The notes beneath the pieces were generated by a model that saw only the letters and a program-made list of their open reading frames with translations, did no database searches and was not told the origin of the DNA. This document shows, piece by piece, positions 257-61,656 of a DNA stretch of 64,000 bases. The stretch lies in NCBI RefSeq assembly GCF_017916365.1, contig NZ_JAFMSU010000001.1, forward strand, positions 372,001 to 436,000, given 5' to 3'. The position numbers and the translations under genes are program-made. Origin of the DNA: Rufibacter roseolus. GTDB taxonomy: Bacteria > Bacteroidota > Bacteroidia > Cytophagales > Hymenobacteraceae. Each line of letters opens with the position of its first letter. Position 1 is the first letter of the stretch.

Positions 257-322
257 AAACTGCCTGTCTCTGTTTTGGGGCTGTTTTCATGGAAATGGCT
301 TCAAAACAGAGACAGGCAGTTT
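257..322. terminator. Bidirectional hairpin between acylase and LytTR gene
   Basis: A perfect 21-bp stem is formed by 257-277 and 302-322. Its loop is the centre of palindrome-family copy 1. It lies between two convergent genes and overlaps the stop of the minus-strand gene, so it probably ends transcription from both sides. There is no long T-run after the stem. Confidence 0.65.
272..307. repeat. Intergenic palindrome family, copy 1
   Basis: The left half is GTTTTGGGGCTGTTTTC and the right half GGAAATGGCTTCAAAAC, with a 2-base centre. It is nested inside the hairpin 257-322. The family is described in the findings. Confidence 0.6.
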
Positions 323-1172
323 ACAGGGCGTACTCCCGCATCCAAGCGTTGAACTCCGGGGTCCTTCTTCGGCTCACGAAGACTTCCTCTTTGAAGGCGG
401 GTTCCAGGGAAATGAGCAGGCGGCCGGTGCCGTCTGAGGAGAACCGCCGCACGGCGCTCATCTGGGCCAGCACCTGTCGGTTCAGCCGGAAGAAAACATC
501 CGGGGGGAGGGTGTTCTCAAAATGCTCCAGCGTCTCGTCTACCAGGTAATCTTTCCCATGAAAGGTGCGCAGGAAGGTGAGTTCTTTGGCTTTGTAGAAA
601 TAAGCGACCTCGGTGAGGGGCACGGGCACCTGGGATTTACCCTGCTGGGCCATGATGTTGCGGGTGGGCACCTCGGGTTTTGGTTCCGGGATGAGCGGCG
701 CCCGTTCCTGTTTCAGGTTCTGGAGTTTGGTTTCGTACTCTTGCTGCACCCGCAGCAGGGCATACAGCAAGTGAAGCCCCGTAAACATCAGGAAAGCCAC
801 CGGCACATCGGTCACGAACACCACCGTGACACTGAACACATCGGCGCGCTGCGCGGCCATGATGAACTCGTTGTAAACGAAGGAGATGAGCGTAACCAGC
901 AGCAGCGTAACCCCGATGCCCAGAAAGGCTTGCTGCAACAGGCGCTCAAAAGGTGCCGTGAGCCAGGAGTAGCGTTGGTCCAGCCGTTCAATGATCCAAC
1001 GGTTGTACTCCCAGAGCGCCCAGATGGATACCATGCAGACAGCCAGGTCCGCGTAGTAATCGGGGTTGCGCAATAGCTCAATCAGGGGCGCCGGCTCCCC
1101 CACGTGCCTGAACAGCAGCCCCAGGAAGGGCGCTACGGCCAATCTGGTTTTCAGGTCGGGGTAACGTGCCAT
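321..1172 (-). CDS. Membrane-anchored LytTR-domain transcriptional regulator
   Basis: The protein has 283 residues. The N-terminal half carries several hydrophobic segments, around residues 40-55, 85-105 and 115-140, followed by a charged, coiled-coil-like stretch (QQEYETKLQNLKQE). The last ~100 residues are a LytTR DNA-binding domain: VAYFYKAKELTFLRTFHGKD, then LEHFENTLPPDVFFRLNRQ and the RRFSSDGTGRLLISLE segment. LytTR domains bind promoter DNA. Here the domain is fused directly to a membrane module instead of a receiver domain, so the signal is probably sensed in or at the membrane; this is inferred from the architecture. No partner kinase is adjacent. It starts at ATG (1170-1172). Its target genes cannot be told from the sequence. 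Confidence 0.8.
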   Translation of the reverse strand: MARYPDLKTRLAVAPFLGLLFRHVGEPAPLIELLRNPDYYADLAVCMVSIWALWEYNRWIIERLDQRYSWLTAPFERLLQQAFLGIGVTLLLVTLISFVYNEFIMAAQRADVFSVTVVFVTDVPVAFLMFTGLHLLYALLRVQQEYETKLQNLKQERAPLIPEPKPEVPTRNIMAQQGKSQVPVPLTEVAYFYKAKELTFLRTFHGKDYLVDETLEHFENTLPPDVFFRLNRQVLAQMSAVRRFSSDGTGRLLISLEPAFKEEVFVSRRRTPEFNAWMREYAL

Positions 1173-1300
1173 GCTTGCGGAGATAGGGTGGATTGCCCTT
1201 TAAAGATAATCATCTGCCGGAGAGGACACCAACCCAAGCGGCTCTCTTTTTCACCCAAAAGTTTAAACACGTTTTGGGCCCGAATTCCCCAAAGAAGTAC

Positions 1301-1333
1301 AAAAGCCGATACTCCAAGGGAATATCGGCTTTT
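1301..1333. terminator. Hairpin terminator after the prolyl oligopeptidase gene
   Basis: AAAAGCCGATA at 1301-1311 pairs with TATCGGCTTTT at 1323-1333, with an 11-base loop. It sits just beyond the 3' end of the minus-strand peptidase gene. The A-run and T-run flanks would let it act on either strand. Confidence 0.75.
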
Positions 1334-1355
1334 AGCTATATTACAGACTGGGCTT

Positions 1356-3548
1356 CTATTGCGCCGCGTAAGGATTCACACCCATGTTGTAGTACACAAA
1401 CGACCACACATCAGCGGCCTCGGCGATCTGGGCGGTGGTGGATTTCCCGGCACCGTGCCCGGCTTTCACGTCTACCCTGATGAGGTACGGATTGGTCCCG
1501 GCACCTTTCTCCTGCAGCGTAGCAATGTACTTGAACGAGTGCGCCGGCACCACACGGTCATCGTGGTCGGCGGTGGTGACCAGGGTGGCCGGATAGTTTA
1601 CGCCTTCCTTGATGTTATGGATGGGCGAGAACTTCATCAGATTCTGGAACTGCGCGGGATCATCTGAGGAACCGTACTCCGGCACCCAGGCCCACCCGAT
1701 GGTGAATTTATGGAAGCGCAGCATGTCCATCACGCCCACGGCCGGCAAGGCCACCTTGAACAGATCGGGGCGCTGGTTTACCACGGCGCCAATGAGCAGA
1801 CCGCCGTTGGAACCGCCGGCAATGGCCAGCTTTTGTGAGGACGTGTATTTCTGCTTGATCAGGTACTCGGCGGCCCCTATGAAATCATCGAAGACGTTCT
1901 GCTTGTTGGGCGTCATGCCCGCTTTGTGCCAGGCCTCGCCGTACTCGCCGCCACCCCTGATGTTGGCCACCGCAAACACGCCGCCGTTCTCCAGCCACAC
2001 CATGCGGGCAATGCTGAAACCCGGGGTCATAGACGCATTGAAACCGCCGTAGGCGTACAGGTAGGTGGGGTTGTTGCCGTCCAGTACCAGACCCTTCTTG
2101 TGGGTGATGAACATGGGCACCTTGGTACCGTCCTTGCTGGTATAGAACACCTGCTTGGTCTCGTAGCCTTCCATATTCACGTCTACCTCAGACTTCCGGA
2201 ACAAGGTGGATTTGTTCGTGGCCACATCGTACTGGTAAATGGTGGTGGGGTAGGTGTAGGAGGTGAAGGAGTAGAAAACGGTTTTGTCTTCCTTTTTCCC
2301 CGTGAAACCATCGGCGGTGCCCAGGGTGGGCAGGGTCACATCATGCAGCCATTTGCCACTGGTGTCATGCACGCGCACCAGCGTGGCGGCATCCTTCATG
2401 TAGTTGAGAATTAAACGGCCGCCTACCAGTGAGGCGTAGTTCAGCACGTTCTCGGTCTCGTGCACTAGGGTTTTCCAATTAGTGGCCTGCGGCTTTTTGA
2501 GGTCTATTTCAATGAGCTTGTATTTGGGCGCGTTCTGGTTTGTGAGCACAATAAGCTTGTCGCCGATGTTCTCCACCACGCCAAACTCCTTGTCAAAGGT
2601 CTGGACCAGCGGCACAATGGGGCTGTTGGCTTTGGAGAGGTCCTTTACGTACAAAGAGTTGTTGCTGGTACCTTCTGAGGCGGTGAGCACGAGGTATTTC
2701 TCGTCCTCGGTGGTGCTGGCAAACAACAGGCGCAGCGGGTGCGCTTTGGCTTCCCAAATGAGTTGGTCCTGGCTCTGCGGCGTGCCTACCTTGTGGTAGT
2801 AGACTTTGTGGTACTCGTTCTTGTTGGCCATTTTGGAGCCTTCGGTGGGCTCTGCGTAGCGGCTATAGAAGAAACCGTCTTTGTGCCAGCTGGTACCCGA
2901 GAACTTGATCCAGTGCAGTTCATCAGACAGCTTTTTGCCCGTGGCCACGTCCAGCACGTAGGCATCGCGCCAATCAGAGCCGCCGGTAGAGGTGGTGTAC
3001 ACCGCGTACTTCCCATCTTTACTGAAATCAAGGCTACCCAGGGAGGTGGTGCCGTCCTCAGACAGTTTGTTAGGATCCAGGAACAATTCAGGGGTGCCGT
3101 TCAGGCCTTTCTGGCGGTAAAGCACACTCTGGTTCTGCAGTCCGTCGTTTTTATAGAAGTAATAGTAATCACCTTCGCGGAAAGGTGTCCCGTACTTGGG
3201 GTAGTTCCAAAGCTGCGTAAGCCGTTTCTGGATCTGCTCCCGGAACGGGATTTTGGAAAGGTAGTCAAAGGTGACGGCGTTCTGCTCTTTTACCCAGGCG
3301 GCCACATTCTGGGCTGTATCGGCTTCCAGCCAGTGGTACGGGTCTTGCACCTGGGTGCCGTGGTAGGTGTCTGTATGGTTTATCTTCTCGGTTTTGGGGT
3401 ACATAAGGTTAGTAGGTTTGGCTGCCGCGGTGGGCGCAGGTGCTTCGGCGCTCGCCTCAGCGGAGGGTGAAGCAGTGGGCGTGCTGGTTTTGCAGCCAGT
3501 CATCGCCGCCAGGGCAGCAACCCAGATAAACGTAAAGGACTTGTTCAT
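1356..3548 (-). CDS. Prolyl oligopeptidase family serine peptidase (S9A), lipoprotein
   Basis: The product has 730 residues counted from ATG 3546-3548. A GTG 21 bases upstream is possible, but the ATG places a lipoprotein signal directly at the N-terminus: MNKSFTFIW, then LAAMTGCK with the lipobox Cys near residue 20. An Ala/Pro/Ser-rich linker follows, then the S9A beta-propeller (about 50-440) and the alpha/beta-hydrolase domain. The catalytic triad is visible as Ser580 in GGSNGG, Asp663 in DHDDRVVP and His698 in AGHGAG. The family cleaves short peptides after proline. The signal suggests an envelope-anchored enzyme that processes peptides outside the cytoplasm. It forms a single-gene unit with its own terminator. 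The length is normal for the family. Confidence 0.93.
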   Translation of the reverse strand: MNKSFTFIWVAALAAMTGCKTSTPTASPSAEASAEAPAPTAAAKPTNLMYPKTEKINHTDTYHGTQVQDPYHWLEADTAQNVAAWVKEQNAVTFDYLSKIPFREQIQKRLTQLWNYPKYGTPFREGDYYYFYKNDGLQNQSVLYRQKGLNGTPELFLDPNKLSEDGTTSLGSLDFSKDGKYAVYTTSTGGSDWRDAYVLDVATGKKLSDELHWIKFSGTSWHKDGFFYSRYAEPTEGSKMANKNEYHKVYYHKVGTPQSQDQLIWEAKAHPLRLLFASTTEDEKYLVLTASEGTSNNSLYVKDLSKANSPIVPLVQTFDKEFGVVENIGDKLIVLTNQNAPKYKLIEIDLKKPQATNWKTLVHETENVLNYASLVGGRLILNYMKDAATLVRVHDTSGKWLHDVTLPTLGTADGFTGKKEDKTVFYSFTSYTYPTTIYQYDVATNKSTLFRKSEVDVNMEGYETKQVFYTSKDGTKVPMFITHKKGLVLDGNNPTYLYAYGGFNASMTPGFSIARMVWLENGGVFAVANIRGGGEYGEAWHKAGMTPNKQNVFDDFIGAAEYLIKQKYTSSQKLAIAGGSNGGLLIGAVVNQRPDLFKVALPAVGVMDMLRFHKFTIGWAWVPEYGSSDDPAQFQNLMKFSPIHNIKEGVNYPATLVTTADHDDRVVPAHSFKYIATLQEKGAGTNPYLIRVDVKAGHGAGKSTTAQIAEAADVWSFVYYNMGVNPYAAQ

Positions 3549-3569
3549 GTTTATGTGCGTTAGTTTCAC

Positions 3570-3915
3570 CAGTTAAAAATCAAAAAAGCGCGGGTTTATG
3601 GACAGCACTTTAAAGAAAACTTACCGGGCCATCCCAAATCTACAAAATGGAAGCCTCTTCAGGGTTATGTTTCGGGCTATAATCCGGAAAACGCTGAGAG
3701 CGTTTGAGCCTGAGAAGCCATACCCATGGGCTTGTAGCCAGCTATACTATATTAGAGAAAACATTCTTATATTCCCAATAAAGAATATTGGCGCGGCGCT
3801 GCACAGAACCAGAGACAAGCTGGCCCGGAGAGCAGCGGCGGGTTTGTCATTTACCTGCACAAACCTTTATCTTCAGGACTTTTGAGCGTTCAGACCCACA
3901 CACCTTACCACAGCC
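3570..3915. other. Intergenic region upstream of YCII gene, no gene seen
   Basis: These 346 bases separate two divergent genes. A 95-codon frame at 3598-3885 has no recognisable protein features. A possible Bacteroidetes-type promoter for the rightward gene is TTTG at 3843-3846 and TATCTTCA at 3868-3875, spaced 21 bases; the match to TAnnTTTG is only partial. AT-rich DNA near 3750-3790 may hold the leftward promoter. Nothing else was identified. Confidence 0.4.
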
Positions 3916-4413
3916 ATGCAATTAAAGCACATTCTTCTTTTGGCCGGACTCTTCTGGGGAGCTGCCTCTGCCCAGGCCCAAAACAAACCCGTTGCCAAAG
4001 AACCCGCCAAACATGCCGCGAAAGCCCCGGCCAGACAAGGAGCTAAAGAGGCCGCCAAACCTGCCGCCCAGGAACAGATGAAACCCGTGATCAAGGAGCC
4101 AGCCGAGGGCGAGATGAAGCTCTACTACATGGCTTTGCTGAGGAAAGGCCCCAACCGAACCCAAGATTCCTTGACTTCTATGAGGATACAGGACGCGCAC
4201 ATGGCGCACATCAACAAGCTGGCCGCCGAGGGCAAACTCACCCTGGCCGGCCCGTTCATGGATGACGGTGACCTGCGGGGTATTTTCATTTTCAACGTTC
4301 AGACCATGGAAGAAGCCAAAGCCCTCACCGAGGCTGACCCAGCCGTGAAAGCCGGTCGCCTGATCATGGAACTGCACCCGTGGTTTGCCCAAAAAGGAGC
4401 CAAACTCAAGTAG
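3916..4413 (+). CDS. Secreted YCII-domain protein with Ala/Lys/Pro linker
   Basis: The protein has 165 residues. Residues 1-22 form a Sec signal peptide ending in ASAQAQ. A low-complexity linker rich in Ala, Lys and Pro follows (about 23-65), then a YCII/ferredoxin-like domain from GEMKLYYMALLRKGP to the C-terminus, with AHMAHINKLAAEGKL and GPFMDDGDLRGIFIF. YCII domains are small dimeric alpha/beta folds, mostly of unknown biochemical role; some are dehydrochlorinase- or muconolactone-isomerase-like. Export of this domain to the periplasm is common in this phylum, but its substrate is unknown. The gene is monocistronic, with a terminator at 4539-4567. Confidence 0.8.
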   Translation: MQLKHILLLAGLFWGAASAQAQNKPVAKEPAKHAAKAPARQGAKEAAKPAAQEQMKPVIKEPAEGEMKLYYMALLRKGPNRTQDSLTSMRIQDAHMAHINKLAAEGKLTLAGPFMDDGDLRGIFIFNVQTMEEAKALTEADPAVKAGRLIMELHPWFAQKGAKLK

Positions 4414-4420
4414 AGAGTAG

Positions 4421-4455
4421 CTTTTTGACCCTTTTCAGAAAAAAAGCCCTGAAAC
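4421..4455. repeat. Intergenic palindrome family, copy 2
   Basis: The left half is CTTTTTGACCCTTTTC and the right half AAAAAAAGCCCTGAAAC, with centre AG. It begins 8 bases after the stop codon of the YCII gene. Confidence 0.55.
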
Positions 4456-4538
4456 AGAAAATAAATTTTTACAGCCGCACAATATGGACCAACCTACTTC
4501 CGTTTTAAGGGGGAAATAGTTGTTGTGTAACGTACCAG

Positions 4539-4567
4539 AAGGATCCGACTGACTTAGCCGGATCCTT
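4539..4567 (+). terminator. Hairpin terminator after the YCII gene
   Basis: AAGGATCCG (4539-4547) pairs perfectly with CGGATCCTT (4559-4567) and is followed by TTG. It is 126 bases past the stop codon, beyond palindrome copy 2. Confidence 0.65.
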
Positions 4568-4717
4568 TTGCGTTTTCAAGCCCCACCTTTTCACCCTTAC
4601 CGGCGGCAGAAATCAGCGTGCCGTTGCCCCTTCCTTCTGATGGTATTTACCCATTATGTTAAGTGAGAAAGCCCTTTCTTACCTCTACACTTCCCTGGCA
4701 AAGCAGTTCCCGTTTTG

Positions 4718-4752
4718 TTTACAGCCCGATTTTCTGAAAAGAGGCCAAAATC
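4718..4752. repeat. Intergenic palindrome family, copy 3
   Basis: The left half is TTTACAGCCCGATTTTC and the right half AAAAGAGGCCAAAATC. The outer arms pair only partly. This is the second copy in the same gap. Confidence 0.45.
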
Positions 4753-7191: not shown

Positions 7192-7233
7192 CAGGTGGGG
7201 TACGGAAACATTTGGCTTTCCGTACCCCACCTG
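7192..7233 (+). terminator. Strong hairpin terminator after the metalloprotease
   Basis: A perfect 17-bp stem is formed by 7192-7208 and 7217-7233 with an 8-base loop, followed by TTTTAGG. Its right edge touches palindrome copy 4. Confidence 0.8.
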
Positions 7234-7268
7234 TTTTAGGGCCGTTTTGAGGAAAACCACTCTGAAAC
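7233..7268. repeat. Intergenic palindrome family, copy 4
   Basis: The left half is GTTTTAGGGCCGTTTTG and the right half GGAAAACCACTCTGAAAC. It directly abuts the terminator stem, so the T-run of the terminator is the start of this element. Confidence 0.55.
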
Positions 7269-7343: not shown

Positions 7344-8711
7344 ATGCCACAGATGAATTGGGAGCGCCTGATCTCCAAGAAACGCTTTGACCTCCAGACC
7401 AAAGAACACGCCACCGATGAGTCGGTGCGCGGGGAATTCCAGCGCGATTATGACCGTTTGGTGTTCTCCACGCCGTTCCGGCGGCTGCAGAACAAAACGC
7501 AGGTCATGCCCATGCCTGAGAGTGATTTCGTGCACAACCGGCTTACCCACAGTCTGGAGACATCATGCGTGGGCCGGTCTCTGGGCCGCATGGTGGGCAA
7601 GGTACTGCTGGAGCGCCACCCGGCCATTCTGGAGACGCACCCCGGCATGCTGGAATCTGATTTCGGGGACATGGTGGCGGCCGCCTGCCTCACCCATGAC
7701 ATCGGGAATCCTCCTTTCGGGCATTCCGGCGAAGACGCCATCTCCGCTTTCTTCCGGAGTTCTGAGGCCGCTGGCTATCTGAAAGACTTGACTGCGGCCC
7801 AGATTTCTGACTTGCAGAATTTTGAAGGGAACGCCGCCGGCTTTCGAATCATCACGCACACCTACCCGGGCCAGAGCACCGGCACCTGCGGCATGCGCCT
7901 CACCTATAGCACCCTGGCCACTTTCACCAAATACCCGCGCCCTTCAGACGCCCTGGTGAAAGGCACCAAAAAAGCCAGCGAGAAAAAGTACGGTTTCTTC
8001 CAGGCCGAGCAGGCGCATTTCAGAAAGATTGCCGAGAAACTGGGCATGCTGCCGGCCGGCGAACACGCGTTCCACCGGCACCCCTTGGCGTTTCTGGTAG
8101 AAGCCGCCGATGACATCTGTTACCGCATCATTGACTTTGAGGACGGTTGCCGACTGGGTTTGATCCCTTTTGAGCAGGCCGCAGAACTGCTGCACCCGCT
8201 CCTGAACGAGCGCCCGGGCAAAACCCACAGCACCACCTTCCATGACTGGCGCGAGCAGCTGGGCGTCTGGCGGGCGGTGATCATCAACAACCTGATCTAT
8301 GAATGCGCCGGCATTTTCCTGGAGAACGAAGAAGCCATCCTGAACGGCACCTTTGACCAGTCTTTGATCAACCTGGTGCAGCAGAAAGCAGCGCTGGACG
8401 AGATCAAGAAAATCTCCATAGACCGCATCTACCGCCACCGCCCGGTGCTGGAGATTGAGGCGGCCGGGTTCGAGGTGCTGGGCGGATTGCTGGAAGCTTT
8501 CCTGAAAGCCGTTTTCGAGCCGTTTTCCGGAAAACACCGCAAATACCTGGATTTGGTGCCCGACCAGTTCCTTGGCCCACAACGCCAGCTCTCCCAGGAC
8601 AACTACGAGAAGATTCTCAACATCACCGACTTCATCTCAGGCCTCACCGACAGCAGCGCCATCAGCCTGTTCCGGAAGATCAAAGGGATTGACTTGCCCA
8701 GAATGTATTAG
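7344..8711 (+). CDS. dgt: Deoxyguanosinetriphosphate triphosphohydrolase (dGTPase)
   Basis: The enzyme has 455 residues and hydrolyses dGTP (or other dNTPs in some members) to the deoxynucleoside and triphosphate, adjusting nucleotide pools in the cytoplasm. The N-terminus MNWERLISKKRF, then DYDRLVFSTPFRRLQNKTQV, is typical of the bacterial enzymes. The HD-domain metal site is visible: His69 in RLTHSLET, His118-Asp119 in THDIGNPPFGHSGE, and a later Asp in EAADDICYRIID. The length fits the short bacterial dGTPase class. Start: ATG 7344, 18 bases after a possible promoter. The gene is monocistronic. Around 8511-8545 the coding DNA happens to resemble the intergenic palindrome, but the residues look normal for the family. 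Confidence 0.93.
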   Translation: MPQMNWERLISKKRFDLQTKEHATDESVRGEFQRDYDRLVFSTPFRRLQNKTQVMPMPESDFVHNRLTHSLETSCVGRSLGRMVGKVLLERHPAILETHPGMLESDFGDMVAAACLTHDIGNPPFGHSGEDAISAFFRSSEAAGYLKDLTAAQISDLQNFEGNAAGFRIITHTYPGQSTGTCGMRLTYSTLATFTKYPRPSDALVKGTKKASEKKYGFFQAEQAHFRKIAEKLGMLPAGEHAFHRHPLAFLVEAADDICYRIIDFEDGCRLGLIPFEQAAELLHPLLNERPGKTHSTTFHDWREQLGVWRAVIINNLIYECAGIFLENEEAILNGTFDQSLINLVQQKAALDEIKKISIDRIYRHRPVLEIEAAGFEVLGGLLEAFLKAVFEPFSGKHRKYLDLVPDQFLGPQRQLSQDNYEKILNITDFISGLTDSSAISLFRKIKGIDLPRMY

Positions 8712-8877: not shown

Positions 8878-8950
8878 AGAGAGAGAGAGAAGAGCTTAGG
8901 GTAGATGAAGATGCTTCTGGTATTCGACAAGTCGATTTGACCTAATTATT

Positions 8951-8968
8951 CAAAAACAGCCTATAAAC
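8951..8968. repeat. Intergenic palindrome family, copy 5 (right half)
   Basis: Only the right half is clear: CAAAAACAGCCTATAAAC. It overlaps the outer edge of the terminator at 8965-9005. Confidence 0.4.
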
Positions 8969-9005
8969 AAAAAGGCCACTGCTTTACGCAGTGGCCTTTT
9001 TGTTT
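8965..9005. terminator. Bidirectional terminator between dgt and the thioredoxin gene
   Basis: An 18-bp perfect stem (8965-8982 with 8988-9005) encloses a 5-base loop. A-rich left and T-rich right flanks make it work on both strands, as expected between convergent genes. Confidence 0.85.
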
Positions 9006-9024
9006 ATCTACCTAATCTTCTCGG

Positions 9025-11958: not shown

Positions 11959-11983
11959 GGGCTGAGAATTGGCAGGCAGGTTG

Positions 11984-12018
11984 TTCTAAGGCGATTTTTC
12001 AGAAAACAGCCTTAAAAG
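11984..12018. repeat. Intergenic palindrome family, copy 6
   Basis: The left half is TTCTAAGGCGATTTTTC and the right half AAAACAGCCTTAAAAG, centre AG. It lies between two same-strand genes, 36 bases past the end of the DUF2939 gene. Confidence 0.55.
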
Positions 12019-12879: not shown

Positions 12880-12933
12880 CGCCGATCCGTTTTACGCCAG
12901 TTTTCTAAAAATCAGGCGTAGAACGGATCGGCG
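12880..12933. repeat. Intergenic palindrome family, copy 7, with extended arms
   Basis: The inner halves are GTTTTACGCCAGTTTTC (12889-12905) and AAAAATCAGGCGTAGAAC (12907-12924). The outer arms CGCCGATCC and GGATCGGCG pair perfectly. Relative to the family consensus the GGGC/GCCC pair is changed to CGCC/GGCG on both sides, a compensating change. It probably serves as the terminator of the ZIP gene, which ends at 12967. Confidence 0.65.
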
Positions 12934-14841: not shown

Positions 14842-14891
14842 GAAGCCCGTTTTTGGTCTGTTTTGGGGAAAACAAGCCAAAAACGGGCTTC
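14842..14891. repeat. Intergenic palindrome family, copy 8, with extended arms
   Basis: The inner halves are GTTTTTGGTCTGTTTTG and GGAAAACAAGCCAAAAAC. The outer arms GAAGCCC (14842-14848) and GGGCTTC (14885-14891) pair perfectly. It lies 14 bases past the end of the next upstream minus-strand gene and likely terminates it. Confidence 0.65.
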
Positions 14892-19041: not shown

Positions 19042-19082
19042 AACGGAGATAGCGAAGCACCTGCTGCTTTTCTATCTCCGTT
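19042..19082 (+). terminator. Hairpin terminator after gpmI
   Basis: AACGGAGATAG (19042-19052) pairs with CTATCTCCGTT (19072-19082), with a 19-base loop, followed by TTTC. It runs directly into palindrome copy 9. Confidence 0.75.
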
Positions 19083-19115
19083 TTTCATCTGTTTTGCGTA
19101 AAACAAGTCAAAAAC
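19081..19115. repeat. Intergenic palindrome family, copy 9
   Basis: The left half is TTTTTCATCTGTTTTG and the right half TAAAACAAGTCAAAAAC. The outer arms are weakly paired. It is attached to the gpmI terminator. Confidence 0.5.
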
Positions 19116-22522: not shown

Positions 22523-22570
22523 AAAGCCGATTTGGGCCTGTTTCCTGAAAAACAGGCCCAAATCGGCTTT
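22523..22570. repeat. Intergenic palindrome family, copy 10, perfect 21-bp arms
   Basis: The arms 22523-22543 and 22550-22570 are perfect reverse complements around the centre CCTGAA. The core keeps the family pattern (GGGCCTGTTT and AAACAGGCCC) inside gene-specific outer arms. It lies between the convergent phytochrome and yjbQ genes and very likely terminates both. Confidence 0.8.
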
Positions 22571-24513: not shown

Positions 24514-24549
24514 GGTTTGAGGCTATTTTATGGAATTAAGGCCTGAAAC
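24514..24549. repeat. Intergenic palindrome family, copy 11
   Basis: The left half is GGTTTGAGGCTATTTTA and the right half GGAATTAAGGCCTGAAAC. An outer word ATTTCTCTG (24487-24495) is matched by CAGAGAAAT just to the right. It is flanked on the left by a word repeat, TTAATGTGCTGATGTGCTAA (24469-24488). Confidence 0.55.
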
Positions 24550-25740: not shown

Positions 25741-25776
25741 GTTTAAGGCTTGTTTCAGGGAAAAGGGCCGTAAAAC
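25741..25776. repeat. Intergenic palindrome family, copy 12
   Basis: The left half is GTTTAAGGCTTGTTTC and the right half GGGAAAAGGGCCGTAAAAC. It is 26 bases beyond the end of the MG2/plug gene. Confidence 0.55.
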
Positions 25777-28645: not shown

Positions 28646-28681
28646 GTTTACTGGCGCTTTTCCGTAAATCTACCCTAAAAC
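28646..28681. repeat. Intergenic palindrome family, copy 13
   Basis: The left half is GTTTACTGGCGCTTTTCC and the right half GTAAATCTACCCTAAAAC. It lies 25 bases beyond the 3' end of the M19 peptidase gene. Confidence 0.45.
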
Positions 28682-31050: not shown

Positions 31051-31084
31051 GGTCGTATCAGGAAACAAGCATCAAGTAGTACGA

Positions 31085-31119
31085 CTTTAGACTTGATTTC
31101 AGGAAAACAAGTTGAAAAC
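31085..31119. repeat. Intergenic palindrome family, copy 14
   Basis: The left half is CTTTAGACTTGATTTC and the right half GGAAAACAAGTTGAAAAC. Here the GGGC/GCCC arms are replaced by GACTTG and CAAGTT, again nearly complementary. It directly precedes the terminator. Confidence 0.55.
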
Positions 31120-32936: not shown

Positions 32937-32972
32937 GTTTTTGGCCTGTTTCCCTAAAAAGCGCGGGAAAGC
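32937..32972. repeat. Intergenic palindrome family, copy 15, degenerate
   Basis: The left half GTTTTTGGCCTGTTTCC is good; the right half AAAAAGCGCGGGAAAGC is degraded. It is 5 bases from the end of the next minus-strand gene. Confidence 0.4.
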
Positions 32973-34776: not shown

Positions 34777-34812
34777 GTTTTTGGTTTATTTTTGGAAAAT
34801 ACGGCCCAAAAC
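34777..34812. repeat. Intergenic palindrome family, copy 16
   Basis: The left half is GTTTTTGGTTTATTTTT and the right half GGAAAATACGGCCCAAAAC. Unlike most copies it lies between two divergent genes (the lipoprotein and radA), with no 3' end nearby. This makes a pure terminator role less likely. Confidence 0.5.
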
Positions 34813-40494: not shown

Positions 40495-40646
40495 AACCTG
40501 ATATCTTTAGATGTTTTCCGTATCAATTGGTGGTTTCTGGACTATACGTAAAAATCCGGTCTGGTTGCCAGCAATATTCAAAATAAATGATATTAGAGGC
40601 ACCTGAAGGCCATTTTTCCCTTTGGGGCACTTTGCCCTGGAAACCT

Positions 40647-40682
40647 GTTTTGGCATTGTTTTCAGAAAAATAGACCCTAAAC
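40647..40682. repeat. Intergenic palindrome family, copy 17
   Basis: The left half is GTTTTGGCATTGTTTTC and the right half AAAAATAGACCCTAAAC, centre AG. It is close to a separate terminator (40699-40728) of the small minus-strand gene. Confidence 0.55.
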
Positions 40683-40698
40683 AGAAAGCCATAAAAGC

Positions 40699-40728
40699 AG
40701 AAAGCCGCTCCTGCTGGAACGGCTTTCT
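40699..40728 (-). terminator. Hairpin terminator of the FeoB-associated-type small gene
   Basis: AGAAAGCCG (40699-40707) pairs with CGGCTTTCT (40720-40728) around a 12-base loop. It follows the 60-residue gene (minus strand) by 25 bases. Confidence 0.7.
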
Positions 40729-40753
40729 ATGGATATCGGTAAGAACAAGATTT

Positions 40754-40936
40754 TTATTTGAAGGCCTTTTTGGCTTCTATCTCCCCCTGGATCTTGGCCA
40801 GGTCAATGGTGGAGCAAGCCCCGCCGCAGCCTTTGGCGCAACCGGCCTCTTTGGAGAAAAAGCTCTTATAGCCCATCCGGAGGAGATAGCCTGCCGCCAG
40901 CAGAAAGATAAAGACGATGATGATTTCCTGTACCAT
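40754..40936 (-). CDS. FeoB-associated Cys-rich membrane protein
   Basis: The protein has 60 residues. A single N-terminal membrane helix (EIIIVFIFLLAAGYLLRMGY) is followed by a Cys-rich segment, CAKGCGGACSTIDLAKI. This matches the small FeoB-associated Cys-rich membrane proteins that accompany ferrous-iron transporters. No feoA or feoB gene is in the window, so its iron-transport partner, if any, is elsewhere. The cysteine set could bind iron or another metal. A terminator lies just downstream. Confidence 0.75.
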   Translation of the reverse strand: MVQEIIIVFIFLLAAGYLLRMGYKSFFSKEAGCAKGCGGACSTIDLAKIQGEIEAKKAFK

Positions 40937-41022
40937 AACATGTGGGTAACGCCGGCAAAGGTAGAAATAGTTTAAAGATTAGCTGGGAATTACCGGTTTC
41001 ACGGTTGAAACTACCTGTGCCA

Positions 41023-41057
41023 TTTTACGACCAATTCTTCAAAAACAGCCCGTAAAC
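41023..41057. repeat. Intergenic palindrome family, copy 18
   Basis: The left half is TTTTACGACCAATTCTTC and the right half AAAAACAGCCCGTAAAC. The outer TTTACG and CGTAAA still pair though they differ from the consensus. It lies 8 bases beyond the suhB 3' end. Confidence 0.45.
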
Positions 41058-44264: not shown

Positions 44265-44300
44265 GTTTTAGGCCTATTTTCAGGGAAATGCTCCCGAATC
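44265..44300. repeat. Intergenic palindrome family, copy 19
   Basis: The left half is GTTTTAGGCCTATTTTC and the right half GGGAAATGCTCCCGAATC. It lies 5 bases past the 3' end of the pterin dehydratase gene. Confidence 0.5.
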
Positions 44301-46321: not shown

Positions 46322-46357
46322 GTTGTAAGGCAGTTTTAAGGAAAACAGGCGCTAAAT
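46322..46357. repeat. Intergenic palindrome family, copy 20
   Basis: The left half is GTTGTAAGGCAGTTTTA and the right half GAAAACAGGCGCTAAAT. It lies immediately after the SDR-unit terminator, so here termination does not need the palindrome. Confidence 0.5.
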
Positions 46358-53394: not shown

Positions 53395-53421
53395 AAACCC
53401 TCAGGCAATGCCTGAGGGTTT
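53395..53421 (+). terminator. Hairpin terminator after the second T9SS gene
   Basis: AAACCCTCAGGC (53395-53406) pairs with GCCTGAGGGTTT (53410-53421) around AAT, followed by TTTTG. It runs straight into palindrome copy 21. Confidence 0.85.
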
Positions 53422-53453
53422 TTTGTTTGTTTTCCGGAAAACGGCTCTAAAAC
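53418..53453. repeat. Intergenic palindrome family, copy 21
   Basis: The left half is GTTTTTTGTTTGTTTTC and the right half GGAAAACGGCTCTAAAAC. The terminator's T-run is part of the left half, as with copy 4. It marks the return to the usual GC-rich chromosome. Confidence 0.55.
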
Positions 53454-54821: not shown

Positions 54822-54866
54822 GTAATCAGACACAGGTAGCAAGGCATTAGACACAAGACTTTTCGC

Positions 54867-54897
54867 GGGGTTTCTTGGAAAACGACCCATAAACCCC
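54867..54897. repeat. Intergenic palindrome family, copy 22
   Basis: The right half GGAAAACGACCCATAAAC is good; the left half is short. Outer GGGGTTT (54867-54873) and AAACCCC (54891-54897) pair perfectly. It lies 45 bases after the glyA stop. Confidence 0.45.
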
Positions 54898-56340: not shown

Positions 56341-56343
56341 GCT

Positions 56344-56378
56344 GTTTTAGGGCTATTTTCTAAAAAAAAGAGGCTTAG
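56344..56378. repeat. Intergenic palindrome family, copy 23
   Basis: The left half is GTTTTAGGGCTATTTTC and the right half AAAAAAAAGAGGCTTAG. The left half matches the consensus perfectly. Confidence 0.5.
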
Positions 56379-56446
56379 ATCACTAGAGGTCTCTTTTCGA
56401 CCAAATGAAATCAGCCTTCCAGCAGAATCTCACCAGAAACCGAAAA

Positions 56447-56473: not shown

Positions 56474-56647
56474 TCTGGTCTTTGACAGACGCTTCTACAA
56501 AGTCTCTCCCGTTGTTGGTGTTATCATCAACAACCTAGACAACGATTCAACCCACGCTGGGAAACTAGGAGTGAAGAACCCTACTACGCCAATCACCATG
56601 AGATTCTCTTCCTTGGAGGGGTAGGGGTGAGTTCCTGCTTCAAGCCA

Positions 56648-56672
56648 GATTCCCTGAAAATAGCCCTAAAAC
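56648..56672. repeat. Intergenic palindrome family, copy 24 (right half)
   Basis: Right half GAAAATAGCCCTAAAAC (56656-56672), 27 bases from the 3' end of the next minus-strand gene; the left half is lost. Confidence 0.45.
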
Positions 56673-56698
56673 AACAACCCAAATCCCGCACCAGGGAC

Positions 56699-58108: not shown

Positions 58109-58203
58109 GCAATGCGCGGCTTAGCCTTCGCTCTGACCTTGCGGCAAAGAGGAGGACGGTTTGTGGGGTAAAAATGTGAAATTAATACGATATTTGCGGA
58201 ACC

Positions 58204-58656
58204 ATGGAAAGTAAACGCCAACAAAAATTCGCCAGACTGATTCAGAAGGAGCTTGCTGAGATCTTCCAGCGCGATGTTTCCCACCTGTTTCAGAGCACCT
58301 ACATATCGGTGAGCGGGGTAGCCGTCTCCCCAGATCTGGGCGTGGCAAAAGTGCATCTGAGCCTGCTGCTCAACCCTAACGGGCGCAATCTGCTCAATGA
58401 GATAAAAGTACATACCAAGACCATCAGGCACGAACTGGCCAAGCGCATCAAGAACCAGGTGCGCGTGATCCCGGAGCTGATCTTTTACCTGGACGATACC
58501 GCCGAGTACGCCGCCAAAATGGACAAGATCATTTCTGAGCTGGATATCCCGTCCGAGTCAAAAGAAGACCCAACCAATCCCTTCCGCACCGAAGAAGACT
58601 ACTACCTATCTGACGAAGATGGCGAAGACGATGAGGAAGACGCCGACGGGCGCTAA
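58204..58656 (+). CDS. rbfA: Ribosome-binding factor A
   Basis: The protein has 150 residues. A small KH-type factor that binds the 16S 5' helix and helps 30S maturation and cold adaptation. Landmarks: MESKRQQKFARLIQKELAEI, ISVSGVAVSPDLGVAKVHLS and IKNQVRVIPELIFYLDDTAE. The C-terminal ~25 residues are very acidic (DEDGEDDEEDADGR), longer than in many relatives. Start: ATG 58204. Monocistronic, or co-transcribed with the methyltransferase that begins 39 bases later. Confidence 0.95.
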   Translation: MESKRQQKFARLIQKELAEIFQRDVSHLFQSTYISVSGVAVSPDLGVAKVHLSLLLNPNGRNLLNEIKVHTKTIRHELAKRIKNQVRVIPELIFYLDDTAEYAAKMDKIISELDIPSESKEDPTNPFRTEEDYYLSDEDGEDDEEDADGR

Positions 58657-58695
58657 TCCGTTACCCGTTCTCCAAGCCAGCTACTAAACCCACCC

Positions 58696-59505
58696 ATGCA
58701 GTACGATCCAATTAAACGCGTTCTGGGCGAGGCCTTCAACAAGACCCCTTTCCTGCGCAAGCTTTTTTACAACCTTTTAGACCTGCTTCTGCTGCGTACG
58801 TGGCACATTCATAAAGAGCTGCGGGCCTGGGCCAAAGGCAAACGCCAGCAGCCCGTACAGATCCTGGACGCCGGCTCAGGCTTCGGACAGTACAGCTACT
58901 ATCTCTCGGGTATGGGCGCCAACTGGCGCATCCTGGCCGTGGACGTGAAAGACGAGCAGATCGCGGATTGCAGCAACTTCTTCCAGAAGATAGGCCGCCA
59001 CAACGTGATGTTCCGGAAAGAGGACCTGGTTACCTACCGGGAGCCGCAGGCCTTTGACCTGGTGCTGAGCGTAGACGTGATGGAACACATCCTGGAAGAC
59101 GTGGAGGTGTTCAAAAACTTTCATGCCTCACTGCGGCCCGGCGGCATGGTGCTCATCTCCACCCCTTCTGACCAGGGCGGTTCAGATGTGCACGGCGATG
59201 ATGAGAGCTCCTTCATTGAGGAACACGTACGCGACGGCTACAACATCAAGGAAATCCAGGAGAAACTGAAGAGTGCCGGTTTCAGCCGCACCGAGGCGCA
59301 TTACTCTTACGGCGCACCCGGCAAAATCTCCTGGCGCCTGAGCATGAAGTACCCCATCCTGATGCTGGGGGCCAGCAAGCTGTTCTTCATCATCCTGCCG
59401 TTCTACTACCTGATTGTGTATCCGTTCTGCCTCTTGTTGAACTGGCTTGACACCAACGGCAAGCACCCTACCGGTACCGGCCTTATTGTGAAAGCCTGGA
59501 AATAG
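58696..59505 (+). CDS. Class I SAM-dependent methyltransferase with C-terminal membrane anchor
   Basis: The protein has 269 residues. Motif I is ILDAGSGFGQYSYYLSGMGA, motif II ILAVDVKDEQIADCSNFFQK, then the acidic core FDLVLSVDVMEHILEDVEVF and SLRPGGMVLISTPSDQ. This is a methyltransferase-11/23-type core. The C-terminus has one or two hydrophobic segments (LFFIILPFYYLIVYPFCLLL) that would attach it to the inner membrane, which suggests a lipid or quinone-like substrate; that is inference. 39 bases after rbfA. Confidence 0.85.
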   Translation: MQYDPIKRVLGEAFNKTPFLRKLFYNLLDLLLLRTWHIHKELRAWAKGKRQQPVQILDAGSGFGQYSYYLSGMGANWRILAVDVKDEQIADCSNFFQKIGRHNVMFRKEDLVTYREPQAFDLVLSVDVMEHILEDVEVFKNFHASLRPGGMVLISTPSDQGGSDVHGDDESSFIEEHVRDGYNIKEIQEKLKSAGFSRTEAHYSYGAPGKISWRLSMKYPILMLGASKLFFIILPFYYLIVYPFCLLLNWLDTNGKHPTGTGLIVKAWK

Positions 59506-59561
59506 CGGCAACAGGTAGTTAGCTGGCTTATTGGAAGATGCAAAGAAGAAGCCTTTCTATA

Positions 59562-59594
59562 TTGGAGCTTTTTTATGGAAAACGGCCCCAAAAC
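59562..59594. repeat. Intergenic palindrome family, copy 25
   Basis: The left half TTGGAGCTTTTTTAT is partly degraded; the right half GGAAAACGGCCCCAAAAC is good. 56 bases after the methyltransferase stop. Confidence 0.5.
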
Positions 59595-59679
59595 AGGCGC
59601 TGCCTTCCGGGCTTTGACAATCTGCCAAGAACTGCTAACTTCACCTGGATATCCCCGCTATTCCTTATAAACCTCCAAG

Positions 59680-60153
59680 ATGATTGAGTTAGTCAGGACA
59701 GATTCAACCAACCCGGATTTTGTAGAGCTTGTTTCCCTTTTAGACGCCGATCTTCACGTGCGGGACGGGGACGACCACTCGTTTTTTGCACAATTCAATA
59801 AAATCACGGCCATCAAACACGTAGTGGTGGCATACCTGCATGAGGTGCCGGTAGGTTGCGGGGCCATCAAAGCCTATTCCCAAGACACCGTGGAGGTGAA
59901 AAGGATGTTTGTGCTGCCTGAGTTCAGGGGGCAGGGCATTGCCGGGGAAATCCTGGCGGAACTGGAGCGCTGGGCCGCCGAGCTGGACTATTCAACGCTG
60001 ATCCTGGAGACCGGCAAAGCGCAGCCCGAGGCCATCAGGTTGTACACCAAGAGCAATTTCAAGGTCATCCCTAACTTTGGGCAATACGAGAACATAGAAA
60101 GCAGCGTTTGCATGCAGAAAGCCGTTCAGCGGCAACCCGTGAGGGAGCTGTAG
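59680..60153 (+). CDS. GNAT family N-acetyltransferase
   Basis: The protein has 157 residues. The acetyl-CoA loop reads VKRMFVLPEFRGQGIAGEIL (the R/Q-x-x-G-x-G/A pattern), followed by LILETGKAQPEAIRLYTKSN and the C-terminal FKVIPNFGQYENIESSVCMQ. It moves an acetyl group from acetyl-CoA to an amine; the substrate is unknown. It is a single gene. Its stop TAG (60151-60153) touches palindrome copy 26. Confidence 0.9.
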   Translation: MIELVRTDSTNPDFVELVSLLDADLHVRDGDDHSFFAQFNKITAIKHVVVAYLHEVPVGCGAIKAYSQDTVEVKRMFVLPEFRGQGIAGEILAELERWAAELDYSTLILETGKAQPEAIRLYTKSNFKVIPNFGQYENIESSVCMQKAVQRQPVREL

Positions 60154-60187
60154 TTTGGTCCTCTTTTTACAGAAATACCCCTGAAAC
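60153..60187. repeat. Intergenic palindrome family, copy 26
   Basis: The left half is GTTTGGTCCTCTTTTTAC and the right half GAAATACCCCTGAAAC. Its first base is the G of the GNAT stop codon. Confidence 0.45.
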
Positions 60188-60325
60188 GGCTACCAGGGGA
60201 GAAGAAAACATAACCCTTTTGCCCCAGAACAGTAAAGGTGACCTGAGTGATGGATGCGTTTAACCATTCTTTCCATCACTCCTTCACTTAATCACTCATT
60301 CACTAATCCACGCATTTACCCAAAG

Positions 60326-61549
60326 ATGAACGTTGCCCTTTTTATCGCCCGGCGGTACTTTTTCTCCAAGAAGAAGCGCAACATCATCAATATCATCTCC
60401 ATCATTGCCATGATTGGCGTGGGCGTGGGCACTATGGCGCTTATTGTGGTGCTCTCGGTGTTCAACGGTCTGGAAGACCTCATCCGCTCGCTGTACGGTA
60501 AGTTTGACCCCGAGATCAAGATCACGGCCGTGGAGGGTAAATCCTTTGAGACGAACGCCCAGTTCCTGGATAGAATCAGAAAGACGCCGGGTGTGGCCCT
60601 GCTCACCGAGGTAATTGAAGACAACGCCCTGCTCCGCTACAACGACCGCCAGATGGTGGTGAAGGTGAAAGGCGTCACAGATAATTTTTTCCAGCAGAAC
60701 CAGATTGACTCCGCTATTGTAGACGGCGACTATCACCTGAAACGCGGAAACCAGCAGTTTGCCTTAATTGGCCGCGGCGTGCAGTACCAGCTCTCCATCA
60801 GACCAGAGAACCCTTTTTCGCCGCTGCAGTTCCTGTATCCTAAGGCCGGCAAGAAAACCATCATCAACCCAGAGAACGCTTTCCGGCAGCTGGGCATCCA
60901 GGCGGGCGGCATCTTCGCTATTGAGCGGCAGTATGATGACCAATACGTTTTTGTGCCGCTGTCCTTCGCGGAGGAGCTGCTGAGTTACGGCAACAAGCGC
61001 ACCTCGCTGGAGATCAAAACCGATAACCTGGACAACATTGACCAGGTAAAGTCTGACTTGCAGAAACTGCTGGGCAAGGAATTCAACGTGCAAGACAGCG
61101 AAGAACAGCACGTGAGCCTGCTCAGGGCCGTGAAAGTGGAGAAGCTGTTTGTGTTTGTCACCTTCACGTTTGTGCTGCTAATTGCCTCCATTAACATCTT
61201 CTTCTCGCTCTCCATGCTGGTGCTGGACAAGCAGAAAGACATTGCCATCCTGGCCTCGCTGGGTGCCGACCCGGGCACCATTAGAAAGGTTTTCCTGCTG
61301 GAGGGCGCTATTGTAGCGTTTACCGGGGCCATTGTGGGCTTGGTAGTGGGCGGCACCATCTGCTGGCTGCAACAGACGTTCGGGTGGGTTTCCATGGGCA
61401 TGAGTACCTCGGTGGTGGAGGCGTACCCCGTGCTCATGCGCCCCACTGACTTCCTGCTTACCGCGGCGGCCATTATCCTCATCACGTTTCTGGTGTCTAT
61501 CCGGCCGGCCCGCCGCGCCGCCGCCCTCACCATTAGGGATAACCTTTGA
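60326..61549 (+). CDS. LolC/E-like ABC transporter permease (FtsX family)
   Basis: The product has 407 residues from ATG 60326 (MNVALFIARRYFFSKKKRNI); the frame from 60254 runs through repetitive DNA (CTTCACTTAATCACTCATTC) and would add 24 unlikely residues. N-terminal TM helix (IISIIAMIGVGVGTMALIVV), a ~215-residue periplasmic MacB-PCD-like domain, then three C-terminal helices (FVFVTFTFVLLIASINIFFS; GAIVAFTGAIVGLVVGGTIC). Such permeases pair with a LolD-type ATPase to release lipoproteins from the inner membrane; no ATPase is adjacent. It fits the lipoprotein-rich setting with lnt. Confidence 0.85.
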   Translation: MNVALFIARRYFFSKKKRNIINIISIIAMIGVGVGTMALIVVLSVFNGLEDLIRSLYGKFDPEIKITAVEGKSFETNAQFLDRIRKTPGVALLTEVIEDNALLRYNDRQMVVKVKGVTDNFFQQNQIDSAIVDGDYHLKRGNQQFALIGRGVQYQLSIRPENPFSPLQFLYPKAGKKTIINPENAFRQLGIQAGGIFAIERQYDDQYVFVPLSFAEELLSYGNKRTSLEIKTDNLDNIDQVKSDLQKLLGKEFNVQDSEEQHVSLLRAVKVEKLFVFVTFTFVLLIASINIFFSLSMLVLDKQKDIAILASLGADPGTIRKVFLLEGAIVAFTGAIVGLVVGGTICWLQQTFGWVSMGMSTSVVEAYPVLMRPTDFLLTAAAIILITFLVSIRPARRAAALTIRDNL

Positions 61550-61552
61550 TCG

Positions 61553-61587
61553 GTTTAGAGCCTCTTTTCTGAAAACAGCTCCTAAAC
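61553..61587. repeat. Intergenic palindrome family, copy 27
   Basis: The left half is GTTTAGAGCCTCTTTTC and the right half AAAACAGCTCCTAAAC. It starts 4 bases after the permease stop codon. GAGCC and GCTCC are both shifted from the consensus, with most pairs kept. Confidence 0.6.
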
Positions 61588-61633
61588 AAATGGGGCCAAT
61601 ACCCTGATTTCCTAACGTTTGTTACCTACATAA

Positions 61634-61656
61634 TTTTAAGAAAATGGCCCTAAAAT
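61634..61656. repeat. Intergenic palindrome family, copy 28 (right half)
   Basis: Right half GAAAATGGCCCTAAAAT (61640-61656); the left half is reduced to TTTTAA. A second copy in the same 215-base gap. Confidence 0.4.

What the first reader, a model, noticed from the sequence alone, without database searches (positions are those of the whole stretch)
272..61656. A ~35-bp palindrome recurs at 28 intergenic sites (family not recognised)
Reading gap by gap, I found the same pattern: a left half like GTTTTAGGGCTGTTTTC, a 1-3 base centre, and a right half like GAAAACAGCCCTAAAAC. It is clear in both halves at 272, 4421, 4718, 7233, 11984, 12880, 14842, 19081, 22523, 24514, 25741, 28646, 31085, 34777, 40647, 44265, 46322, 53418, 56344, 59562, 60153 and 61553; degenerate at 32937 and 41023; half copies at 8951, 54867, 56648 and 61634. 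Inner TTTTC/GAAAA is nearly fixed, while the outer arm varies but often stays complementary (GGCC, CGCC, GACTTG, GGGCC). This covariation suggests a selected hairpin. It is almost always within about 100 bases of a 3' end, and absent inside tight operons. It could be a terminator class, a REP-like selfish element, an RNA 3'-end protector, or a protein binding site. I do not know of a named family matching it.
Basis: seen in the sequence. Interest (0 to 1): 0.85.

Follow-up and report, generated by a model that had tools for sequence, protein, structure and literature searches.

The report
Rufibacter-wide palindrome between genes
A 36-base two-fold-symmetric DNA sequence sits between genes about once every 2.5 kb in this Rufibacter-group genome, stays at the same places in related species while its spelling changes from species to species, and looks like a docking site for an unknown DNA-wrapping protein near the ends of genes.

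Summary
The element is 36 bp, GTTTTnGGsCTGTTTTC-NN-GAAAACAGsCCnAAAAC: 29 hits in the window, 0 in each of 10 shuffles, 0.39 per kb in 456 kb of the genome. A relaxed core pattern occurs 531-1710 times in all 16 genomes held of the genus (Rufibacter plus Sabulibacter) and near control level in the others searched. It is not visibly mobile: against R. hautae, 193 of 204 orthologous gaps agree on presence or absence, and the phased T/A tracts are what is mainly conserved. Whole genomes switch "dialect": one form has 824 copies in one species and 0-39 in the 15 others; another 658 versus 0-2. Usually one per gap; where a terminator was recognised, mostly after it. AT content oscillates every ~10 bp to about 60 bp either side. 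Covariation is mostly in outer arms and flanks and looks partly like fold-back template switching. Best reading: a DNA-level boundary site for an unidentified, two-fold-symmetric DNA-wrapping protein. RAYT-driven REP, terminator, RNA 3'-end protector and uptake sequence fit poorly; DNA gyrase is the closest analogue and remains possible.

The parts
272..307 (.). 36-bp dyad element, score 23.0
4420..4455 (.). 36-bp dyad element, score 22.0; the orthologous gap holds an element in 8 of the 8 congeners for which the gap could be mapped (of 12 tried)
4717..4752 (.). 36-bp dyad element, score 20.5 (second copy in the same gap)
7233..7268 (.). 36-bp dyad element, score 24.0; mapped gap in 12 of 12 congeners, 11 with score >=20, G015 17.0 (G008 gap is 2.1 kb)
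8935..8968 (.). weak copy (18.0) abutting a U-tract terminator hairpin at 8963-9007
11983..12018 (.). 36-bp dyad element, score 22.5; present in 12 of 12 congeners (19.5-23.5)
12889..12924 (.). 36-bp dyad element inside a longer locus-specific palindrome whose flanks covary between species; present in 11 of 12 congeners (two at only 18.0), none in G008
14849..14884 (.). 36-bp dyad element, score 25.0, inside gaagccc/gggcttc; present in 12 of 12 congeners
19080..19115 (.). 36-bp dyad element, score 21.5; present in 11 of 11 mapped congeners; one half little changed in most of them, the other changes
22529..22564 (.). 36-bp dyad element, score 22.5, convergent gap, extended palindrome
24514..24549 (.). 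36-bp dyad element, score 20.5
25741..25776 (.). 36-bp dyad element, score 22.5
28646..28681 (.). 36-bp dyad element, score 22.0
31084..31119 (.). dyad element, score 19.5
32937..32972 (.). dyad element, score 21.0
34777..34812 (.). 36-bp dyad element, score 22.0
40647..40682 (.). 36-bp dyad element, score 22.5 (inside a small, doubtful ORF 40622-40975)
41022..41057 (.). dyad element, score 20.0
44265..44300 (.). 36-bp dyad element, score 21.5
46322..46357 (.). 36-bp dyad element, score 21.0
53418..53453 (.). 36-bp dyad element, score 24.0, directly after a GC hairpin, so that its left T tract could serve as that hairpin's U tail
54859..54894 (.). dyad element, score 20.5 (reader: half copy)
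56344..56381 (.). dyad element with 4-bp centre, score 23.0
56637..56672 (.). dyad element, score 21.5 (reader: half copy)
59559..59594 (.). 36-bp dyad element, score 22.5
60152..60187 (.). dyad element, score 19.5, starts at the stop codon of the upstream ORF
61553..61587 (.). dyad element with 1-bp centre, score 22.0
61621..61656 (.). weak copy, score 18.5

Best explanation
A genus-specific double-stranded DNA site at the boundaries of transcription units, bound by a dedicated, abundant, two-fold-symmetric protein that bends or wraps about 120 bp. SHOWN: each site is two 17-bp half-sites that vary nearly independently in their inner part, each with two T tracts 11 bp apart and a G/C block between, joined head to head with a ~2-bp centre. 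The tract cores are more conserved than comparable T or A runs elsewhere, and flanking DNA is helically phased on average. There is usually one site per inter-gene gap, nearer the 3' end, mostly after a terminator where one is recognised, and less often in divergent gaps. Sites largely stay in place across the genus while the consensus changes genome by genome. INFERRED: a protein reads the tracts largely by minor-groove shape, its specificity drifts between species, and the sites follow. Also inferred: the bound site insulates neighbouring units in both directions (blocks read-through and/or absorbs or confines transcription-driven supercoiling), which would explain why one symmetric site is mostly enough even between convergent genes. 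The protein is not identified. Outer-arm complementarity and locus-specific extended stems are, in this reading, mainly a mutational by-product (fold-back template switching), not the function.
For: Genus-wide excess and restriction. 204 orthologous gaps: 89 neither, 104 both, 11 discordant, 3 of these with large deletions. At 63-72% mean protein identity the same gaps tend to carry it, each in its own dialect: pooled 33 both, 68 neither, 27 lacking only in G013, 4 only in G013. Dialects 824 vs 0-39 and 658 vs 0-2. Inner half-sites nearly independent. Inner arm without strand asymmetry. One per gap: own 113 gaps with 1, 18 with 2, none with 3 vs null 72/23/6.5; G004 104/14/1 vs 62/22/5.5. Gaps >=60 bp with a site: convergent 95/165, tandem 274/546, divergent 57/161. 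After terminator 42, before 15, overlapping 7. AT oscillation amplitude 0.0123 at 10 bp (offsets 25-75) vs null maximum 0.0058.
Against: No binding protein was found, so 'protein' is an inference. Outer arms and flanks do covary between orthologues, 22 double complementary changes occurred where 10.2 were expected, and all six inner pairs 8-13 are complementary in 61 sites where 39.8 are expected, so hairpin selection is not excluded. Outer positions 5-7 show G-U 113 vs A-C 80, a weak RNA-like signal; the stem-rich subset 47 vs 30 is not significant. Elements and U-tract terminators co-occur somewhat more than expected, pooled 97 vs 78 over 8 genus samples, and 15 of 64 sites lie before the terminator. 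165 of 380 tandem gaps >=100 bp lack a site, so it is not needed at every boundary. Own and G004 have a small excess of lone half-sites. The 21 sites with an indel were left out of the identity figures, and 61 of 179 sites were not covered by the alignment with 40-bp flanks. The phasing fades: at offsets 40-100 it only equals the null maximum (0.0054 vs 0.0053), and single genomes are noisy, own alone having 0.0118 at 8 bp. Gene calls are greedy ORFs, not curated.
Confidence: 0.5

Rival explanations
1. The protein is DNA gyrase itself: the elements are strong gyrase capture sites placed where positive supercoils pile up downstream of genes.
For: E. coli gyrase motif = 36-bp centre plus two 47-bp arms with 10.75-bp periodic GC, possibly read indirectly, gyrase enriched downstream of transcription units (PMC6379681, section 23 and passages); here a 36-bp centre with ~10-bp periodicity to ~62 bp from the axis. 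Order convergent > tandem > divergent fits. Some E. coli palindromes (BIME-2) are gyrase sites.
Against: Type II enzymes of three species share a -4G and -2A cleavage preference (PMC12324340, section 12); if the axes coincide, the -2 place here is a near-invariant T and the -4 place mostly T, A in G013. Gyrase motifs are degenerate, these tracts are near invariant. Within E. coli, downstream regions did not have better gyrase motif scores than the rest. GyrA of 12 genus members has only 10 diagnostic columns against 8 outgroups, so genus restriction and dialect switches are unexplained.
Confidence: 0.17
2. An RNA hairpin at the 3' end: a bidirectional terminator or an mRNA 3'-end stabiliser.
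For: Palindrome near 3' ends; outer-arm covariation in orthologues with locus-specific stems; weak G-U excess in the outer arm; mild positive association with U-tract terminators (pooled 97 vs 78).
Against: Not followed by a U tract; not a substitute for U-tract terminators (own 22 vs 24.0 expected together, G004 33 vs 26.9); after the terminator in 42 of 64 cases (how many of these use the element's own T tract as tail was not counted); inner arm mostly without covariation and without strand asymmetry; no Rfam match at gathering threshold in the window.
Confidence: 0.13
3. A REP- or MITE-like selfish palindrome moved by a transposase (for example a RAYT) and kept uniform by turnover.
For: High copy, extragenic, palindromic, uniform species-specific consensus; Y1_Tnp matches in 15 of 16 genus members; 13 such genus loci (about 42 kb) hold 22 elements, 0.52 per kb, against 0.20-0.50 per kb in the sampled stretches.
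Against: G007 has no Y1_Tnp match at E <= 0.001 yet has 752 core matches, while other genera with Y1 matches have the core only near control level; no duplicated 36-mers in the own, G004 or G001 samples; positions largely fixed between species and few clean gains or losses; at most two copies per gap in own. In G013 many 36-mers in the listing are identical, which a burst would also give.
Confidence: 0.1
4. A DNA uptake sequence: a self-recognition tag for natural transformation.
For: About a thousand copies with species dialects, as in Neisseriaceae (PMC3630211, search listing only); T tracts phased by a turn; a small excess of lone half-sites in coding DNA of own and G004 (17 vs 3 and 10 vs 3 at the top threshold).
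Against: The unit is the full dyad: 304 halves in full elements against 22 lone ones in own at that threshold, and none in coding DNA of the G014 and G013 samples; mostly in gaps (own 152 of 183); one per gap.
Confidence: 0.05

Closest known systems
REP / BIME palindromes of enterobacteria
   Same: Extragenic, palindromic, high copy, in intergenic regions; some BIMEs are gyrase sites (passages and listing).
   Different: No consistent Y1-transposase link, no clusters in own, positions largely fixed across species, T/A-tract core with near-independent inner half-sites, whole-genome dialects.
DNA gyrase binding motif (Mu SGS, Topo-Seq motif)
   Same: 36-bp centre plus helically phased arms of ~45 bp, two-fold symmetric, downstream of genes.
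   Different: Near-invariant T tracts, different bases at the shared cleavage-preference positions, restricted to one genus.
DNA uptake sequences of Neisseriaceae
   Same: High copy number, species dialects (listing only).
   Different: 36-bp dyad unit, mostly outside coding DNA, usually one per gap.
Quasi-palindromes shaped by template switching
   Same: Arm homogenisation and spacer inversion are the stated signatures (PMC8604942, abstract in search listing); signs of both are seen here.
   Different: Here superimposed on a conserved sequence family; explains the covariation, not the family.

Membership tests
REP elements (RAYT-associated) | Linked RAYT / Y1 transposase | tested here: not met
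   no Y1_Tnp match in G007, matches in genera without the element; 22 elements in 13 genus Y1 loci (0.52 per kb), only slightly above the 0.20-0.50 per kb of sampled stretches.
REP elements (RAYT-associated) | GTAG- or CGTC-type tag at one end (PMC3733652, title and abstract start in the listing) | tested here: not met
   Consensus ends are GTTTT and AAAAC.
REP elements (RAYT-associated) | Extragenic, high copy | tested here: met
MITE / mobile repeat | Presence/absence polymorphism with clean insertion | tested here: not met
   own vs G004 only: 11 of 204 gaps discordant; 3 with large deletions, 8 alignable weaker sites.
DNA gyrase site | 36-bp centre with ~10.5-bp phased arms to ~65 bp | tested here: met
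   (average over 595 sites) against PMC6379681.
DNA gyrase site | Shared type II cleavage preferences (-4G, -2A) | tested here: not met
   assuming the two axes coincide.
DNA gyrase site | Gyrase binding or cleavage in vivo | not testable with these tools
   Needs Topo-Seq or ChIP.
Intrinsic terminator | GC stem followed by a U tract | tested here: not met
   Element ends AAAAC; U-tract terminators occur beside it, mostly before it.
Conserved RNA hairpin | Compensatory change through the stem and G-U tolerance on the transcribed strand | tested here: inconclusive
   Outer arm yes, most of inner arm no; G-U 411 vs A-C 364 overall.
DNA uptake sequence | Functional single copies, many in coding DNA | tested here: not met
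   few lone half-sites, though more than the control in own and G004.
DNA uptake sequence | Sequence-specific uptake | not testable with these tools
   Needs a transformation assay.

The most novel reading that the evidence does not exclude
A bacterial insulator system: one genus evolved a dedicated DNA-wrapping protein and placed its two-fold-symmetric site in about half of its larger inter-gene gaps, and the protein's specificity has drifted so that many hundred sites per genome were rewritten in place, species by species.
Probability: 0.35. Interest if true: 0.92.

Novelty: new variant of a known kind. Interest (0 to 1): 0.76.

Why it matters
If the reading holds, bacteria can carry a genome-wide system of symmetric boundary sites between transcription units. 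It would be a ready case for how a DNA-binding specificity and many hundred targets change together, because sites can be aligned one by one between dialects. It also gives a clean test of what insulates neighbouring genes (read-through versus supercoiling). And it warns that covariation in intergenic palindromes can partly be a replication by-product and not proof of RNA structure.

Tried and rejected
RAYT link: rejected, see rivals. RNA hairpin throughout the arm: rejected for most of the inner arm. Terminator substitute: rejected. Uptake sequence: rejected. Similar dyads in five other genera of the family, 80 kb each: A-run/T-run pairs and low counts; no analogous family seen. GyrA change as cause: nothing striking. 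Synteny of contig starts for G013: no orthologues in three genomes and one doubtful in the fourth; replaced by gyrA-centred regions. Site-poor islands: 1 site in 1.9 kb of intergenic island DNA vs 2.16 per kb elsewhere; too little data. Weak hit 17351 (score 19.0): none in 5 of 12 congeners, at most 19.5 elsewhere, so scores near 19 include false sites. Centre inversion: clear for the tetramer (4 vs 0.43), not for the central two bases (3 vs 2.56). Literature: searches listed no title or abstract that describes this element; only open-licence PMC papers were searched and four were opened.
Full report
WHAT IS THERE. With a two-half-site score, all 22 'clear' sites and both 'degenerate' ones are recovered at 19.5 or more; two of the four 'half copies' are complete and two are weak. 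At score 20 or more the window has 29 hits and each of 10 dinucleotide shuffles has none. The unit is 36 bp: GTTTTnGGsCTGTTTTC, a centre of 2 bp in most cases, and the reverse complement. In 456 kb of contiguous own sequence there are 179 sites, mean spacing 2.5 kb, which extrapolates to about 2,200 in 5.5 Mb.

WHERE IT OCCURS. A strict pattern is found 59 times in the own genome with no reversed-control match, 10-820 times in all 16 genus members, and once each in 2 of the other 43 genomes; in an order-wide draw of 194 genomes, 7 besides the own one had 1-4. A looser, dialect-proof core (TTT-N9-TTT-N4-AAA-N9-AAA) gives 531-1710 per genome in all 16 genus members against 6-21 for the reversed control, and 1-46 against 1-36 in 28 other genomes. 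Among 395 genomes drawn from the phylum, of which only the own one is of this genus, the largest other count is 92 against 69. A few of the others exceed their control somewhat (for example 39 vs 17, 27 vs 7).

IT STAYS IN PLACE. G004 is collinear with the own contig over 400 kb. Of 179 own sites, 118 are covered by the alignment with 40-bp flanks, 96 of them intergenic. Of 82 intergenic 2-bp-centre sites among these, 61 have no indel inside and every one of the 61 still scores at least 18 in G004; 21 have an indel and were left out of the identity figures. Tract cores are 93-100% identical, positions 6-12 and 25-31 62-84%, the centre 51-67%; the end bases (0, 1, 36) are 87-90%. Intergenic DNA in general is 81% and the middle of other TTTT/AAAA runs 89%. 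Of 204 orthologous gaps, 89 have no site in either, 104 in both, 11 in one only; 3 of the 11 have a large deletion, the other 8 align to a weaker sequence. In the purU region the corresponding gap holds an element in 8 of 8 mapped congeners (gap of 4420/4717), 12 of 12 (7233, one at 17.0), 12 of 12 (11983), 11 of 12 (12889), 12 of 12 (14849) and 11 of 11 (19080); the weak hit 17351 is absent in 5 of 12. Around gyrA, at 63-72% mean protein identity between G013 and the others, pooled gap comparisons give 33 both, 68 neither, 27 lacking only in G013, 4 only in G013. These are not independent, because one gap is counted once per congener, and the threshold was 19 for G013 and 18 for the others.

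DIALECTS. G005 uses TTTAG...CTAAA: 824 strict copies there, 0-39 in the 15 others. G013 uses TCATTT...AAATGA: 658 copies there, 0-2 in the 15 others. At orthologous loci the G005 form sits where others have their own form (4 of 5 loci in both arms). So many hundred sites per genome appear to have changed in place and in concert, which is what a drifting recognition protein, or a homogenising process, would produce.

ANATOMY. Half-sites are nearly independent in their inner part: in own, G001, G006 and G013 the pairs 8-16 are about as complementary as their column make-up predicts, apart from single pairs (own 9/28 z 2.5, own 14/23 z 3.4 in one of two selections, G013 12/25 z 4.1-4.4), and a few are less complementary than expected. 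Lone half-sites are few: at the top threshold own has 304 halves in full elements and 22 lone ones against 5 in the control; G004 260, 19 and 5; the G014 and G013 samples 55 and 57, with 1 and 0 lone. Oriented by transcription, 309 tandem sites show G-U 411 vs A-C 364 mismatches; positions 8-17 254 vs 252; positions 5-7 113 vs 80. Outside the 36 bp, AT content peaks near 22.5, 30.5, 40.5, 51 and 62 bp from the axis (595 sites, both sides pooled); amplitude at 10 bp is 0.0123 in offsets 25-75 against a null maximum of 0.0058, only equals the null maximum in 40-100 and is below the null 95% level in 70-130; single genomes are noisy. T tracts one turn apart with a G/C block between, plus phased flanks, are what a bent or wrapped duplex looks like.

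POSITION. Own sites are intergenic in 152 of 183 cases, G001 60 of 83, G006 26 of 28, G013 22 of 29, by greedy ORF calls. One site per gap is the rule: own 113 gaps with one, 18 with two, none with three, against 72, 23 and 6.5 expected for random placement; G004 104, 14 and 1 against 62, 22 and 5.5; spacing CV 0.86 and 0.76 vs 1.22. In gaps of at least 60 bp: convergent 95/165, tandem 274/546, divergent 57/161; the divergent deficit against tandem holds for gaps of 100-400 bp, not for 60-99 (2 of 7) or above 400 bp (22/36 vs 55/90). Median distance is 43 bp from the upstream stop and 99 bp to the downstream start. Where a U-tract terminator is recognised in a tandem gap with an element, the element lies after it 42 times, before it 15 times, overlapping 7 times; some 'after' cases may use the element's own T tract as the tail, as at 53418, and I did not count these. 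Elements and terminators at 3' ends co-occur 97 times where 78 are expected over 8 genus samples (own 22 vs 24.0, G004 33 vs 26.9, G001 14 vs 8.5), so they do not replace each other.

COVARIATION. Across 5 orthologous loci in 11-12 species (59 rows, best-scoring element per gap), complementarity exceeds within-locus shuffles at 7, 6, 5, 2, 0, -1, -6 (0 of 500 shuffles each) and more weakly at 11, 9, 1, -3, -4, -5 and -7, and not at 3, 4, 8, 10, 12-16, -2, -8 or -9; shuffles do not correct for kinship. Between own and G004, 22 double complementary changes are seen where 10.2 are expected (maximum of 300 permutations 18), 17 of them at positions 2, 5, 6 and 7. Runs of ten or more pairs outward from position 7 occur 63 times where 7.9 are expected (655 sites); all six inner pairs 8-13 are complementary 61 times vs 39.8. 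The centre tetramer is exactly inverted in 4 of 50 changed pairs against 0.43 expected, the central two bases in 3 of 41 against 2.56. Arm homogenisation and spacer inversion are named as outcomes of template switching between inverted repeats (PMC8604942, abstract in listing), and PMC8794818 (title and abstract start in listing) says template switching can create and maintain hairpins. A fold-back primed by the inner arm would copy outward, which would explain why outer arm and flanks covary and the inner arm mostly does not. This is my inference; selection for a hairpin at some loci is not excluded.

WHAT IT WORKS LIKE. The closest physical match is DNA gyrase: the E. coli motif has a 36-bp centre and two 47-bp arms with 10.75-bp periodic GC, possibly read indirectly, and gyrase gathers downstream of transcribed units (PMC6379681: abstract, section 23 and passages seen). 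But the bases at the cleavage-preference positions shared by enzymes of three species are different here if the axes coincide (PMC12324340: abstract and section 12 read), GyrA looks ordinary, and gyrase would not explain genus restriction or dialects. I therefore prefer a dedicated, unidentified DNA-wrapping protein acting at gene boundaries, with gyrase as the first rival. RAYT-driven REP, terminator, 3'-end protector and uptake sequence each fail or strain at least one tested feature (membership table).

LIMITS. Genes are greedy ORF calls. Scores were set on the window's own consensus, which undercounts other dialects. Function is inferred from position and conservation only.

Noticed in passing
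L084 (G006:C1:4461261-4462088): The purU orthologue of G006 carries one internal TAG, and three congeners (G007, G013, G014) show no close purU orthologue, only matches at 30-36% identity.
   Followed up: no
window 8511-8546: A high-scoring dyad (23.0) lies inside the coding region 7344-8711, and a similar dyad appears in the fetched regions of four congeners (G003, G004, G011, G012); likely coding coincidence, possibly a real intragenic site.
   Followed up: partly
G013, L039-L041: The centre of the dyad is TG or CA in 19 of 22 tandem sites, so the element has a direction there, but the two directions are mixed relative to transcription.
   Followed up: partly
L107 and rows of G009: G009 has the fewest core matches (531) and some sites of the form GCTTA...TAAGC, perhaps another dialect or decay.
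   Followed up: no
G016, G020 samples: In these two genera the leading intergenic dyads are AAAAA paired with TTTTT at 25-33 bp, i.e. probably bidirectional intrinsic terminators.
   Followed up: no
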